A stretch of DNA of 64,000 bases from Rheinheimera pacifica (lineage in GTDB: Bacteria > Pseudomonadota > Gammaproteobacteria > Enterobacterales > Alteromonadaceae): positions 372,001 through 436,000 of the forward strand of contig NZ_FNXF01000001.1 of assembly GCF_900108485.1 (NCBI RefSeq). Reading direction: 5' to 3'. The notes below the pieces were generated by a model, which worked only from the letters and a program-made list of their open reading frames with translations, was not told the DNA's origin and did no database searches. Numbering within the stretch: position 1 is the stretch's first letter; every line of letters begins with the position of its first letter. Of the stretch, positions 18,324-24,295 are shown piece after piece. A program made the translations under genes and the position numbers.

Positions 18324-21300
18324 ATGAGCAGCACCTTTTTCTTCGGCGAATGGCAGGTTGAGCCTGCAGCCAATACATTACGTCGTGGCAAGCAGCTGCA
18401 GCAGCTTGAACCCAAGGCCATGGATGTACTGGTATTGTTATGTCAGCACAGCGGTGAAGTGCTCAGCAGTGATGATATTGTCAGCCGGTGCTGGCCCGAT
18501 ACAGACACCGGCGATAACCCGCTGCATAAAACCATTAACCAGCTGCGCCGGGCGCTGGGTGATACGGCTACCAGCTCCAGTTATATTGAAACCATTCGTA
18601 AACGTGGTTACCGCACCCTCGCAGAGGTGCGTTTTCCGCTGGGGCAGGAGCAAAGTGCCCAACCGCAAAGCTGGCAGGGCGGTTCACCATTTCCGGGCTT
18701 ACAGGCCTACGACGCACGTTACGCTAAAGTGTTTTTTGGCCGTGGGGCGCAAATTGACACCTTATTACAACGTATAGCGCAGCAGGTGCAGTATGGCCGG
18801 GCATTTTGTTTACTGCTTGGCCCCAGTGGCAGTGGTAAGTCGTCATTAATTAATGCCGGTGTTATGCCCAACCTGATGCAAAGTGGTGGTTACAACGGCA
18901 TCCAGGTAATGGACTGCACCAGCCTGGATTTAGCCGACGTCGCGCAGCAACAGTTATTTAGCAGCCTGGCCAGCGCATTACTGGACTGGGAGCAAGCCGG
19001 CACACCGGTGTTTGCCGGTGAAAGTGCCGACAGCCTGGCGCAGCGGCTGTTACAAAGCCCGGAGCAGGTGATCCAGCAGTGCCATACCGTGCTGACGCAG
19101 CAAAGCCAGACCCGACAGCGCTTTGCGTTGTTTGTTGACCGGTTGGAAGTGCTGTTGTCATCCCCCCTGTTTAGCTCTGATGAACGCAAAACCTTTGTTG
19201 ATTTACTCGAGCAGTTTGCCAATTCCGGCGCAGTATTGGTGTTAAGCGCCTGTCGCAATGAATTTTATCCCTCCCTGGTGGCTTACCCGAATTTGATGGC
19301 GGGCAAAGGCCGCGGTGCGCATTTCGATTTGGCCCCACCGGGGCGTGCTGAGCTGTTGCAGATGATTCGCTTACCGGCGCTGGCGGCGAATTTAAGCTGG
19401 GACACCGATCCTGATACTGCCATACCACTGGATGAAATGCTGTGCAGCGAAGCGGCCAGTAACCCGGATGCGCTGCCGATGCTGCAGTACACCCTGCAGG
19501 AACTGTATTTGCAGCGCAGCAAAGATAACCGCTTGCTGGTGTCGGTATACAAAGCACTGGGCGGTATTGAAGGTGCCATTGGTAAAAATGCCGAACAAGC
19601 TATTAAAGGTTTAACCGCAGCGCAAAAGGCCAGCTTACCGCGGGTGTTGTCGTTACTGGTAACCCTGCGCGAAGACGAGCAAACCATTACCAGCCGCAGC
19701 GGCCGTGTGCAGCAACTGCAAACCGACGACGAGCGCATGCTGGTGCAAACGATGGTAGAAAACCGCTTGTTTGTGTCACACCTGCAAAACGGCGAGCCCT
19801 GCTTTAGCATCGCGCACGAAGCCCTGCTGCGGCGCTGGCCAAGGGCAACGGCCTGGATCACTGAGCACCACGACAGTTTAAGCGTTAAAAGCCGGTTGCA
19901 TCACTTAACCAACCGCTGGCAGGCCGAGAGTAAAAACAATGCTTATCTGCTGGCAGAAGGAAAACCGCTGCAAGAGGCTCTGTTGCTGGCAAACAACAGT
20001 TTATTTCAGCTTGATACAGAAGAAGCCGGCTTTATTCAGGCGTCAGCCAAAAAAGCCCGCATGCTGCGCTGGGGCCGGCGAATGACAGTGGCTCTGCTGT
20101 GTGTACTAACCTTTACCGCTGTAATTATGAGCATTAAAAGCTTTGAAGCCGAGCAGCAGGCACAGCAAAAGCGGCTGGCGGCGGAAAACCTGCTGGGTTT
20201 TATGGTGGGGGAGTTCGCCGATAAACTGCGCAGCATAGGCCGGATGGATTTACTCGATGGTATCAGCAATAAAGCACTGGAATATTTTAGTGATTTTTCT
20301 TCTGCCAACGATCATCTCACTGCCGAAGCCCGCTTTAAACATGGCCAAACCCTGGAAGCGATGGGCGAAGTGGCTTATTCACGTGGCAAAATCGACGAAG
20401 CTGTGGCGGCACTGCAAGCGGCCAGAGTTAAGCTGCTTTCAGTGTTGGCGGAGCAACCCGATAATTTAGAGTTATTAAAAACCTTAGGTGCTAATGCTTT
20501 CTGGCTGGCGCAAATTCAATATGATGCCAGTAACTGGCAGGCGGCGAAGCCAGAGTTTGAGCTGTATTACCAATACAGCGAGCGGATGTATCAGCTAGCA
20601 CCAGACGATTTAGACGCCATTATGGAGCTGTCTTATGCTACCAACTCATTAGGTTCGCTGGCGATGGAGCTGCAGCAGTTTGATGTAGCTCGCAAGAACT
20701 TTGAAGAGTCATTGCGACTTAAAGTATTAGCGCAAACAAAACAACCTGATAGCGGGCAACTGCTTGCCGATGTCGCCAATACTCTTTCCTGGTTGGCAAG
20801 TGCAACACTGGCTGGTGGCAATATGCATTTGGCTATTGAAATTCATCAGCAGTTGCAGGCTGAACTGGCAAATACTAAAGCAAAGCCCGAACCCTATTTA
20901 CTACATATCCTGTCAAGCAGCTATCAAATACTCGCAGATTTACTAAGTTACCAAGGCAAAATAGCTGAGGCTCAGATTGCATCCTCTTTGGGAGGACAGG
21001 CTCTATCTCAGGCAATAGAACAAGACCCTGAAAATAGTATATGGCAAAGAAATAAGCATTTTCTCAACTATCAGCAGTTTAGAATAAACGCAATCTCAAA
21101 TGCAGAGCAGGTTGTGCAGAAACTTACTTTACTGACTGACAGATTAAATGCGCAAAAAATGCTGCTCTCAAGCACCAACCATAAAGATATAATGGCCAGG
21201 CTTTGGCTTACGGCGGCAGAACAATTACAAGCGATAAGTCAATTTATGCCAAGTAAAAATTACGCCGATTTAGCTTATATTTCTTTCTCTGAACTTACTG

Positions 21301-21572
21301 AGCAGTACACACAAAACCCAATTTATAGTGCTGCTTTATCAGATAGCCAGTTGCTGCAAGCCAAGGTTTTAATGGCTGAAGATAAGTTTAATGAAGCTAT
21401 AAATCTTTGCCGTCAAACTCAAGACCGTTTAGCTGTTATCACCGAAAAAAACAAAGAACCACGGTATCTTATTACCTATGCAAAGGCGCTGGATTGCCAG
21501 GGTGAGCTAAAAAAACACTCTGATCTTATTGCTATGCTCAAACAAAATGGCATAGTCAATTATTATTTTTAA
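18324..21572 (+). CDS. Winged-helix / nSTAND1 NTPase / TPR membrane regulator
   Basis: A 1082-residue multidomain protein. Residues 3-103 are an OmpR/CadC-type winged helix ([17 protein letters not shown], then [13 protein letters not shown]). From residue 120 a novel-STAND type 1 NTPase begins ([15 protein letters not shown]), with Walker [10 protein letters not shown] at 166-174 and a [12 protein letters not shown]alker B-like strand. One membrane helix lies near 586-605. The rest (about 640-1080) is helical with TPR-like repeats, probably periplasmic. The architecture suggests a one-component sensor acting directly on DNA; signal and target are unknown. I chose the ATG at 18324 because the winged helix starts there; 18288 is possible. 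A DP-EP gene follows after 23 bases. Confidence 0.85.
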
Positions 21573-21595
21573 TACCAACTATAAGGAGTTACGTT

Positions 21596-21964
21596 ATGTC
21601 CACAAGAGCCTCAGAGATTATTCAAGTAGTAGTAAACCTGGAAAACGGCGAGCCAGTATTCAGCTACCAAACACCTGGCGGTGAGCCATGCACTGGCGAT
21701 GTCACCGTTACCGAAGCCAGTACTATTACCTATCAACTACAAGATAACACCGGTAAAGGCTTAAGATTTTCTGGTGTCGGCTTTATAACGCCTTTTGATG
21801 GTATTATTGATGCGGTGACTGTTAGCAGTGACGGCCAGTATGTGCAGATGCTGGATATGGATCAGACAGCCGGCACCACTAAATTTCAGTTTGTGCTAAC
21901 CAACAGTACAAATACATTACTAGTGTTAAGCCCTGATCCAGAAGTTAAAAATAACCCGAAGTAA
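21596..21964 (+). CDS. DP-EP family small protein
   Basis: A 122-residue soluble protein without signal peptide, rich in beta-forming residues, ending with [12 protein letters not shown] recognise it as probably a DP-EP family (DUF1888) protein, a group of small beta-sandwich proteins of unknown role found in Shewanella-like genera. The ATG follows AAGGAG ideally, 23 bases after the STAND regulator, and a terminator follows at 22001. This suggests a two-gene unit. Function is unknown; it may be the regulator's target, ligand or output. Confidence 0.65.
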
Positions 21965-22000: not shown

Positions 22001-22033
22001 AAAAAAGCCCCGCAAGGGGCTTTTTAGTTTTTT
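22001..22033 (+). terminator. Rho-independent terminator after the DP-EP gene
   Basis: The hairpin AAAGCCCCgcaaGGGGCTTT is preceded by A residues and followed by a T-rich tract. It ends the STAND regulator/DP-EP unit. Confidence 0.9.
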
Positions 22034-22131
22034 AAAATCAATAAATTAAATCAGAAGGTTGTCAGAAGGTTGTTTATATAGCTAAAGGTTAAAGTTTGCT
22101 GCAGATAAGCCAACTGTAGCGAGATACCCTG

Positions 22132-23106
22132 ATGACTAATTCCAACCGCAAAAACGAACTTCGGCCGTTGGCTCTGAATGATGACAGCTTATGGTCGGAT
22201 GATGGCTGCAAAGAATTGTCGCCAGGAATGGAAGTAGGCAGTTTTATTCAATACCTGGCTGAAGCTGTATTGGTGGTTAGCCCCGATGGTGTAATCGAGT
22301 GTGCCAATGCCAAGGCAGCGTTATTGCTTAACTGCGTAGATAAACCGCTGATTGGCCAGCAATGGCCGGAATTTTTAATGGGCCGCTGCCAGCAGCAGTA
22401 TCAGGGCCTGGTAAAAATGGTGGCAAAACGGGTATTGTCGCTACAGGCTGGCCCTACTGAAATGGCGCTGCGCTGTGCCGATGGTGAGGTAAAAGATATT
22501 GAGCTGTCGGTATCGTTTTTGCCTGAACCAGAGGCGCACTTAGTACTGGTAATGCGTGACCTTACGCGCTACAAAGCCGAATATGAAAAGCTGCGCCTGC
22601 AGGCTTCTACCGATGCATTAACCGGGCTGGCTAACCGTCGTGCTTTTGACGAACAGTTGTTACAGCAGTGGCAGCAATGCACCGCTGCCAAACGGCCGCT
22701 GAGTGTGGTGATTATTGATATTGATTTTTTTAAGCAGTTTAACGATCGCTACGGCCATATTCAGGGCGATGCCTGCCTGCGTAAAGTAGCCGGTGCCATA
22801 GTACAGGCCATGCCGGTAGATGCCAAGCTGGCAGCCCGTTATGGCGGCGAAGAGTTCGCACTGATATTGCCGAACCATAATGAAATAATGGCACTGCAGG
22901 TAGCCCGTGATGTACAGCACGCCATGCGTCAGTTGCAGTTTACCGACGCTGGCTTACCTGCCACGTTAACTGTGTCAGTAAGCCAGGGTATTGCCACCGA
23001 AATTAACGGCCAGTACCGCACCAGCATGGCATTGCTGTGTGCCGCTGACACTGCGTTATACCGCGCTAAGGCAGATGGACGCGATTGTATTAATGCCAGT
23101 TGTTAG
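22132..23106 (+). CDS. PAS-GGDEF diguanylate cyclase
   Basis: A 324-residue soluble protein. A PAS domain covers about residues 40-150 (EAVLVVSPDGVIECANAKA), and a GGDEF domain about 155-322 (STDALTGLANRRAFDEQL, the signature RYGGEEFALIL, then VSVSQGIA). It should make cyclic di-GMP in response to a signal sensed by PAS. The RxxD inhibitory site usually five residues before GGEEF is replaced by VDAK, so product inhibition is probably absent. No membrane segment is seen. It stands alone; no effector or EAL gene is adjacent. Confidence 0.92.
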   Translation: MTNSNRKNELRPLALNDDSLWSDDGCKELSPGMEVGSFIQYLAEAVLVVSPDGVIECANAKAALLLNCVDKPLIGQQWPEFLMGRCQQQYQGLVKMVAKRVLSLQAGPTEMALRCADGEVKDIELSVSFLPEPEAHLVLVMRDLTRYKAEYEKLRLQASTDALTGLANRRAFDEQLLQQWQQCTAAKRPLSVVIIDIDFFKQFNDRYGHIQGDACLRKVAGAIVQAMPVDAKLAARYGGEEFALILPNHNEIMALQVARDVQHAMRQLQFTDAGLPATLTVSVSQGIATEINGQYRTSMALLCAADTALYRAKADGRDCINASC

Positions 23107-23440
23107 AAGGCCGCAAAGTAATGATTAGCGGCCGCCTGATGCAAGGTGGGAGATATACCTGGCAGTGCAGCACATTTACCCAAAGAATGTGCTGATAAAC
23201 TTCTGATACAGCTTTGTTGATATTTAATAAACCATTATTAATCAGTTGTTTATATTTGTAGCGTCTGAAATTTTTGATATCCGTAAAAGCTTCCAGATAT
23301 GGAATAGTGTTTTATCTGGTGTTGCTAAAGGATAGCCGGTAGTACGAACGTAGCTGAAGCCGCGTTTGTGCTGGTTATGCACCACCGGTATCTGCCGGTG
23401 ATAACAACACACCACTATTCTATTGTTCGGAGAGTCAGAT
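23107..23440. other. Intergenic region upstream of the pectate lyase
   Basis: This 334-base gap contains a hairpin just after the GGDEF stop (GGCCGC/GCGGCC, 23109-23133). Just before the lyase, at 23374-23405, is an inverted repeat whose inner arms are CACCGG/CCGGTG with a six-base loop and outer arms GTTAT/ATAAC. The latter could be an operator or leader hairpin. No gene is seen. Confidence 0.5.
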
Positions 23441-24295
23441 ATGGATCACTTTTATAAACTTGCTGTTGCCGCTGTGCTGCTATTAGCAATGAGTACGCAT
23501 GTTCAGGCGAATACACGCTGTAAGGCTGGGGCTACCTTCACTAATGAAACAGTAGACTGCGGCGGAACCTATGTCACGGGCGGCTCGTGTTCCGGCGATG
23601 GCGATGGCCAGTCGGCTGTAATCATTCTTAAAAATGCCACTATCAAAAATGCAAAATTTGCTCAGGGCCGGTCCAGCAAGGGGATCTGGTGTGAATCAGG
23701 TACCTGCAATGTTGACAACGTTACCTTTGACGAAGTATGCGAAGATGCGGTCAGCACCCGTAAGGATGGCGTAACGCTTAATATTAAAAACAGCACCTTT
23801 AAGAATGTGATGAGTAAGGATAAAAGCTACGGCGGCAAGCCCGACAAGTTTATTCAGGTAAATGGTAAGAATGTGAAAGTAAATATAGAAAACTCTAACT
23901 TCCATATTGTGCCGGCCAGCGGTTCGGTACCCGACAAAATAACCGGTAAGGCTGGTAAGGTAGTGCGCACCTGTGGCAACTGCAGTGGCAACGAAGGGCC
24001 ACGTACCATCACCATGAAAAATGTAAATGTATACGGCCCGATTGATGCAATCGCCGGAGTCAATGCCATGTACCGTGGGTTAAATTCCGGTATACGCGAT
24101 ACTATCACTATTACCAACCTGAAAGTACAGGATTACCAGGCACCCAGCGGCTCGGCGGTTAAGTCTACGCCGGAAATCTGTCAGGAGTTTGAAGGTATTG
24201 ACAAGAACAAGCATTCAGGTGATTCGCCCAAGTTGGGCCAGGCTTGGCAAACCACCAGTTGCAAAGTAAGCACAAGCAACGTTTCCAGGCTTTAA
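23441..24295 (+). CDS. Secreted pectate lyase, polysaccharide lyase family 3 type
   Basis: A 284-residue protein with signal peptide (HFYKLAVAAVLLLAMSTHVQA). The mature part matches the PL3 pattern: ATIKNAKF, GIWCESGTCNVDNVTF, EVCEDAVSTRKDG and KPDKFIQVNGKNVKV. In that family this region forms a right-handed beta-helix with calcium-binding acidic residues (the D/E cluster around VCEDA) and catalytic basic residues. It should cleave polygalacturonate by beta-elimination. I chose the ATG at 23441 after GGAGAG; a TTG at 23423 is also in frame. It has many cysteines, as expected for an extracellular enzyme. There is no other pectin gene nearby. Confidence 0.82.
   Translation: MDHFYKLAVAAVLLLAMSTHVQANTRCKAGATFTNETVDCGGTYVTGGSCSGDGDGQSAVIILKNATIKNAKFAQGRSSKGIWCESGTCNVDNVTFDEVCEDAVSTRKDGVTLNIKNSTFKNVMSKDKSYGGKPDKFIQVNGKNVKVNIENSNFHIVPASGSVPDKITGKAGKVVRTCGNCSGNEGPRTITMKNVNVYGPIDAIAGVNAMYRGLNSGIRDTITITNLKVQDYQAPSGSAVKSTPEICQEFEGIDKNKHSGDSPKLGQAWQTTSCKVSTSNVSRL

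What the first reader, a model, noticed from the sequence alone, without database searches (positions are those of the whole stretch)
18324..21964. Membrane-anchored winged-helix/STAND/TPR regulator paired with a DP-EP protein
The sequence shows a CadC-like winged helix, a STAND NTPase with intact Walker A, one membrane helix and a long TPR region in one polypeptide, then a DP-EP gene 23 bases later and a terminator. STAND NTPases usually act as signal-triggered switches; joining one to a DNA-binding head and, apparently, a periplasmic TPR sensor suggests an ATP-gated one-component sensor. The small beta-rich partner has no known role. I know of no described function for this pair.
Basis: partly seen in the sequence, partly recalled or inferred. 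Interest (0 to 1): 0.75.

Follow-up and report, generated by a model that had tools for sequence, protein, structure and literature searches.

The report
Membrane STAND regulator controlling c-di-GMP synthesis
In a group of aquatic bacteria, a membrane-spanning DNA-binding switch protein, a small partner with an almost unchanging tail and a c-di-GMP-making enzyme form one conserved unit, and the switch most likely turns on the enzyme gene through a dedicated DNA site.

Summary
In detail: 18324-21572 encodes a 1082-aa wHTH, nSTAND1, one-TM, TPR protein, followed 23 nt later by a DP-EP gene (21596-21964) and a terminator. The pair is real: 71 of 79 surveyed wHTH-nSTAND loci have DP-EP downstream, and DP-EP tracks the TPR half. 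Behind the terminator lies a third member, a PAS-GGDEF diguanylate cyclase (22132-23106), found for 66 of the 71 pairs; in the genus all three occur in the same 24 of 31 genomes. Before it sits an 11-bp direct repeat, RGAAGGTTNNCRGAAGGTT (22053-22071), 18 nt from a -10 box, present upstream of the cyclase in 62 of 62 loci tested, following the gene through insertions and inversions, and found once in this genome at up to 1 mismatch. Best reading: the regulator is an ATP-switched, membrane-bound activator dedicated to one c-di-GMP gene (binding not shown). DP-EP is not without known relatives: SO1698 is a solved self-cleaving protein. Across the family the cleavage residues vary, but the tail DP(Q/E)(V/I)xN is nearly fixed and also ends some unrelated, exported proteins, so I propose it as the TPR ligand (inferred).

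The parts
18324..21572 (+). Membrane-bound regulator: wHTH, nSTAND1 NTPase, one TM helix, TPR superhelix (1082 aa)
   Evidence: Pfam, AF2 model, fold matches
18402..18614 (+). Winged-helix DNA-binding domain (Trans_reg_C, aa 27-97)
18687..19937 (+). nSTAND1 NTPase (aa 122-538); Walker A at 18819-18845
   Evidence: Pfam E 4.6e-88; invariant G171, K172, S174, D272 in 71 sequences
20088..20144 (+). Membrane helix (about aa 589-607), basic flank before it
   Evidence: hydrophobicity scan
20151..21569 (+). TPR superhelix (about aa 610-1082), probably periplasmic
   Evidence: AF2 pLDDT mostly 87-97 from aa 671 on; LGN, NprR, Rap, MalT matches
21596..21964 (+). DP-EP protein (122 aa)
   Evidence: PF08985 E 5.8e-32; SO1698 chains E about 1e-48
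21935..21961 (+). Conserved C-terminal tail DPEVKNNPK
   Evidence: 79 sequences: D114 in 78, P115 in 79, V/I117 in 77, N119 in 77
22002..22025 (+). Intrinsic terminator behind DP-EP
   Evidence: conserved in the genus
22053..22071 (+). 11-bp direct repeat RGAAGGTTNNCRGAAGGTT, candidate operator
22090..22095 (+). -10 element TAAAGT, 18 nt after the repeat
   Evidence: column composition over 61 loci
22132..23106 (+). PAS-GGDEF diguanylate cyclase (324 aa), third member of the unit
   Evidence: PF24820 and PF00990; same 24 of 31 genomes as the pair

Best explanation
The locus is a three-gene signalling unit. The regulator sits in the inner membrane with its ToxR/CadC-like wHTH and STAND NTPase in the cytoplasm and its TPR superhelix in the periplasm. 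When switched (most likely by an ATP-driven STAND rearrangement after a change at the TPR), it binds the direct repeat at 22053-22071, whose second half lies where a -35 box would be, and activates the promoter of the diguanylate cyclase, so raising c-di-GMP. DP-EP is the constant, probably co-transcribed partner of the regulator; its near-invariant C-terminal tail DP(Q/E)(V/I)xN is the likely contact, most plausibly with the TPR, and self-cleavage in front of the tail in SO1698-like members may expose or reset it. Shown: the gene set, co-occurrence, conservation of tail and site, promoter geometry. Inferred: that this wHTH binds the repeat, activation rather than repression, ATP gating, tail-TPR binding.
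For: 71 of 79 wHTH-nSTAND loci have DP-EP downstream; the cyclase is found for 66 of the 71; regulator, DP-EP and cyclase are present in the same 24 and absent from the same 7 of 31 genomes. The repeat lies within 450 nt upstream of the cyclase in 62 of 62 loci at 0-4 mismatches, reversed control 4-7, with the -10 at fixed spacing, also where the cyclase is inverted. At <=1 mismatch 20 of 24 unit genomes and 0 of 7 others have it, 21 sites, all at the unit. Site plus spacing at <=2 mismatches in 77 chosen genomes: 64 of 68 matches at the unit or its cyclase, control 3. Recognition helix GDNxxHK kept in the operator-bearing regulators, changed in those without the site. No sigma-70-like promoter by itself there. 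Tail conservation, tail on unrelated proteins of the unit, TPR part closest to peptide-binding TPRs.
Against: No binding, expression or ATPase data. The primary DP-EP has no signal peptide, so it should be cytoplasmic while the TPR should be periplasmic. The tail forms a strand of the DP-EP fold in the model and may be kept for that reason. Five of 71 pairs have no cyclase found (G566, G691, G443, G469, G681), one of them (G566) with the usual recognition helix. In L087 an insertion separates DP-EP from a shortened regulator, yet the site persists. Adjacent genes can be lost together, so co-occurrence is not independent evidence; counts are not corrected for phylogeny. Conserved structural neighbours do not prove peptide binding.
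Confidence: 0.62

Rival explanations
1. The three genes are linked, but the direct repeat is read by another OmpR-family response regulator; the membrane regulator acts on other, unseen targets.
For: Any OmpR-type wHTH could read an 11-bp tandem repeat (recalled); genomes hold many such proteins; no binding data here.
Against: The site is absent (<=1 mismatch) from the 7 genus genomes without the unit and sits only at the unit in the 20 that have it; a general response regulator should have more sites; recognition helix and site change together.
Confidence: 0.14
2. DP-EP acts as a protease on the regulator or on another protein rather than as a tail-bearing partner.
For: SO1698 is titled an aspartic peptidase and its wild-type chain is cut at Asp-Pro; the window protein keeps the cleavage residues D35, K96, S112, D114, P115.
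Against: Across 79 sequences the Asp equivalent to D37 is kept in 33 and the Lys equivalent to K98 in 38, both in 29, while the tail is kept; the cut known is in itself.
Confidence: 0.1
3. The unit is a defence (conflict) system, as for some other nSTAND1 proteins.
For: The nSTAND1 clade is named from bacterial conflict systems (PMC8195603, passages seen).
Against: PADLOC gives one weak P-loop hit (mad3, E 1.3e-4); no match to the window DP-EP in 72,556 plasmid or 50,697 phage records; the proteins diverge together (r 0.70-0.86); the linked gene is a cyclase with its own promoter.
Confidence: 0.05

Closest known systems
ToxR/CadC-type membrane-bound one-component regulators
   Same: Cytoplasmic OmpR-like wHTH, single TM helix, periplasmic C-terminal part; wHTH closest to ToxR in fold and to CadC in NCBIfam (E 5.7e-18, far below that model's cut-off)
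   Different: An nSTAND1 NTPase lies between wHTH and membrane; the outer part is a long TPR superhelix; a DP-EP partner and a single cyclase target
MalT-type STAND activators
   Different: wHTH at the N-end instead of a C-terminal LuxR-type HTH (recalled); membrane helix between NTPase and TPR; nSTAND1 clade
RRNPP peptide receptors (Rap, NprR, PlcR)
   Different: Gram-negative, membrane-bound, STAND NTPase present; partner is a folded beta-sandwich without signal peptide; tail almost fixed, not strain-specific; binding not shown
SO1698 of Shewanella oneidensis (DP-EP, PF08985)
   Same: Homologue of the window DP-EP, E 2e-45 to 2e-48; cleavage residues present in the window protein; so1699, by its number the neighbour, is called a transcriptional regulator repressed by ArcA (PMC2262068, one passage seen)
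   Different: Nothing I could read states a genomic partner or target; the J Biol Chem 2012 paper is recalled, not held

Membership tests
DP-EP family (PF08985) | Score over the Pfam cut-off (25 bits) | tested here: met
   111 bits, aa 8-121
DP-EP family (PF08985) | Residues for Asp-Pro self-cleavage as in SO1698 (D37, K98, S114, D116, P117) | tested here: met
   D35, K96, S112, D114, P115 in the window protein; cleavage itself not tested
ToxR/CadC-type regulators | N-terminal Trans_reg_C wHTH and one TM helix | tested here: met
ToxR/CadC-type regulators | CadC equivalog model (NF007540) | tested here: not met
   65 bits against a cut-off of 400
STAND NTPases (nSTAND1) | nSTAND1 profile with intact Walker A and B | tested here: met
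   296.8 bits; invariant residues
STAND NTPases (nSTAND1) | Nucleotide-driven switching | not testable with these tools
   needs biochemistry
RRNPP peptide receptors | TPR receptor fold | tested here: met
RRNPP peptide receptors | Binding of a short secreted and re-imported peptide | not testable with these tools
   primary DP-EP has no signal peptide; binding untested
Diguanylate cyclases | GGDEF domain with GG(D/E)EF motif | tested here: met
   PF00990 150 bits; RYGGEEF in the window protein

The most novel reading that the evidence does not exclude
A Gram-negative, membrane-bound counterpart of peptide-receptor signalling: the gene behind the receptor makes a self-cleaving beta-sandwich whose released or exposed C-terminal tail DP(Q/E)(V/I)xN is the ligand of the TPR receptor, and the STAND switch turns tail binding into transcription of one diguanylate cyclase. 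The same tail has been placed on otherwise unlike exported proteins (next to a subtilase in G506, a signal-peptide protein in G710), so it is a portable address read by the TPR.
Probability: 0.2. Interest if true: 0.9.

Novelty: new variant of a known kind. Interest (0 to 1): 0.73.

Why it matters
It gives a solved but orphan protein family (DP-EP, SO1698) a genetic context, a proposed partner and a testable job; it names a candidate operator, promoter and single target for a STAND-type membrane transcription factor, a layout for which I found no description in the library searched; and it ties a STAND switch to c-di-GMP control, testable in Shewanella oneidensis MR-1.

Tried and rejected
Anti-phage defence: one weak PADLOC hit, no plasmid or phage match. 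Autoregulation through the same repeat: in the 79 loci the best sites (<=4 mismatches with the -10; up to three shown per locus) lie downstream of the regulator, none before it. A larger regulon: the four off-unit matches in 77 genomes are at control level (4 against 3), and the 26 off-unit sites in the order likewise (26 against 21 reversed); of the four, two were fetched: G515 has no ORF within 250 nt behind it, G680 small ORFs of 20-88 aa. Upstream regions of the regulator in 14 genus loci share a promoter-like block in part only. TPR with DP-EP was not modelled as a complex: the tool gives no contacts. Rfam was not searched.

Rows left out: the 79 loci are the window, 2 named contigs (L005, L006) and 76 fetched stretches that hold a wHTH+STAND ORF over 800 aa. 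L079 (DP-EP 580 nt from a contig end, no regulator detectable there) and L080 (sub-threshold 61-position fragment with a stop, no regulator detectable) were dropped, as were L140 and L144-L146 (STAND without wHTH, no DP-EP). Regulator hits in G832, G808, G671, G460 and G472 were not fetched.

Literature: DP-EP and SO1698 terms gave no relevant paper (listings); STAND+wHTH+TPR+cyclase terms gave none; nSTAND listing (47), passages of PMC8195603, one passage of PMC2262068, FrpC self-processing papers as listing only, Aeromonas ORF2 listing only (77), SO1695-SO1700 listing (88).

Full report
1. What is there. The window comes from a Rheinheimera-like genome: the closest named record, Rheinheimera oceanensis GL-53, has a DP-EP 97% identical. 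At 18324-21572 it holds a 1082-aa protein with an OmpR-like winged helix, an nSTAND1 NTPase with intact Walker motifs, one membrane helix with a basic flank before it and a TPR superhelix; 23 nt on follow a 122-aa DP-EP protein and a terminator stem.

2. The pair is constant, and which half it follows. DP-EP (PF08985) is found in 2 of 369 genomes of the class, 15 of 118 of the family (14 over Pfam's cut-off), 24 of 31 of the genus and 35 of 394 of the order (the samples overlap). In fetched neighbourhoods, 71 of 79 wHTH-nSTAND proteins over 800 aa have DP-EP on the same strand downstream, 66 of the 71 within -50 to 120 nt; four lie at 211-259 nt and one at 2632 nt behind an insertion. Pfam misses the partner in G413, G420, G455, G483, G443, G469 and G681, but an ORF of 116-131 aa with the same kind of tail is in place. 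Seven regulators with the same head but another C-terminal half (one with a weak TPR match) have none. So DP-EP goes with the TPR half. The eighth without DP-EP, L147, has a 168-aa ORF on the opposite strand, tail to tail with the regulator, that aligns to the DP-EP profile only at the C-terminal tail.

3. The third member. Clustering the neighbours showed one other widely recurrent gene, a PAS-GGDEF diguanylate cyclase, window 22132-23106. A cyclase aligning over at least 200 aa is present in 62 of the 71 pairs in the first stretches, further downstream in G413 and G483, and on another contig in G455 and G431: 66 of 71. In 31 genomes of the genus the regulator, DP-EP and this cyclase occur in the same 24 and are missing from the same 7, although each genome shows 35-68 first-look candidates for the cyclase and only one match at 1e-40. 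The genes are adjacent and the 7 may be one clade, so this alone is modest evidence; persistence across families despite insertions, inversions and separation is stronger. The three proteins diverge together (r 0.83 regulator/DP-EP, 0.86 regulator/cyclase, 0.70 DP-EP/cyclase in 62 loci, not corrected for phylogeny).

4. The operator. Aligning the stretches between DP-EP and cyclase revealed a direct repeat with an 11-bp period, RGAAGGTTNNCRGAAGGTT, in the window at 22053-22071. Within 450 nt upstream of the cyclase it is found in 62 of 62 loci with 0 (25), 1 (11), 2 (19), 3 (6) or 4 (1) mismatches, against 4-7 for the reversed pattern in the same stretches, including three loci where the cyclase is inverted (L067, L073, L121). 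18 nt behind it comes a -10 element, in 61 loci T .98, A 1.0, A .62, A .74, G .74, T 1.0, and CA (.80/.87) at 31-32 nt. Genome-wide at <=1 mismatch: 20 of 24 unit-bearing and 0 of 7 unit-less genomes of the genus, 21 sites, all at the unit, reversed control 0. In the order 36 of 394 genomes have 41 sites: 15 sites at the unit in 15 of 36 unit-bearing genomes, 26 elsewhere, which is near the reversed control (21 in 394 genomes); of 10 exact sites 8 are at the unit. Repeat plus spacing at <=2 mismatches in 77 genomes that I chose (70 with unit or DP-EP, 7 without): 58 of 70 and 1 of 7; 68 matches, 64 at the unit or its cyclase, 4 elsewhere, reversed control 3. Of the 12 without such a match, six have a 3-4-mismatch site before the cyclase, five have no cyclase found, and one is a contig fragment.

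5. Why the regulator should read the repeat. Tandem repeats 10-11 bp apart, the second half at the -35 position, are the layout of OmpR/PhoB-type activators (recalled). The wHTH is, with the stretch behind the membrane helix, the most conserved part of the regulator (.69 each). The recognition helix keeps GDN(P/S)(L/V/I)HK in the operator-bearing regulators, while the four divergent DP-EP regulators without site read GDSP or SDNP and those without DP-EP GDAPVQK or SDSPVSK; G566 keeps GDNPLHK but shows neither cyclase nor site within the 16 kb fetched (read by eye). A sigma-70 scan finds no promoter between 22040 and 22132, which fits an activator-dependent one. In five genomes (G413, G420, G455, G483, G431) a further site precedes a 68-83-aa hydrophobic protein, a possible extra target.

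7. Judgement. The unit, its third gene and the site are well supported; control of the cyclase by the regulator is likely; the role of the DP-EP tail is a hypothesis. It is a new variant of known kinds (ToxR/CadC topology, MalT-like STAND switching, TPR peptide reading) in a combination for which I found no description in the library searched.

Noticed in passing
L149 4326-11029 (G413): Between DP-EP and the cyclase lie an HlyD-like 397-aa gene, a 910-aa gene that looks like a C39-peptidase ABC transporter and a 710-aa gene (named by eye), then a first operator copy before a 68-aa hydrophobic protein and a second before the cyclase.
   Followed up: partly
L150 5190-5514, L151 1096-1422, L152 8308-8634, L153 1724-2068: A small hydrophobic protein of 80-83 aa stands behind its own copy of the operator in G420, G455, G483 and G431: a possible second target.
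   Followed up: partly
L082, 3.8-6.1 kb after the regulator start (G506): A secreted S8 subtilase with P-domain and an exported ORF_2_N-like protein ending in LSPDPQVVNRKDN are inserted between DP-EP and cyclase.
   Followed up: partly
L135-L139, L141, L142: A sister type: similar wHTH-nSTAND1-TM head with another C-terminal half, no DP-EP, recognition helix GDAPVQK, and in six of the seven a conserved divergent gene of 211-216 aa upstream.
   Followed up: no
L100 4273-6970 after the regulator start (G487): An operator copy and a shortened copy of the cyclase start follow DP-EP, then a REP-type transposase-like gene and three small genes, then the second operator and the full cyclase: an apparent duplication with insertion.
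   Followed up: no
window 23423-24295: A pectate-lyase family protein (PF03211, E 6.6e-27) follows the cyclase; not conserved with the unit outside close relatives.
   Followed up: no
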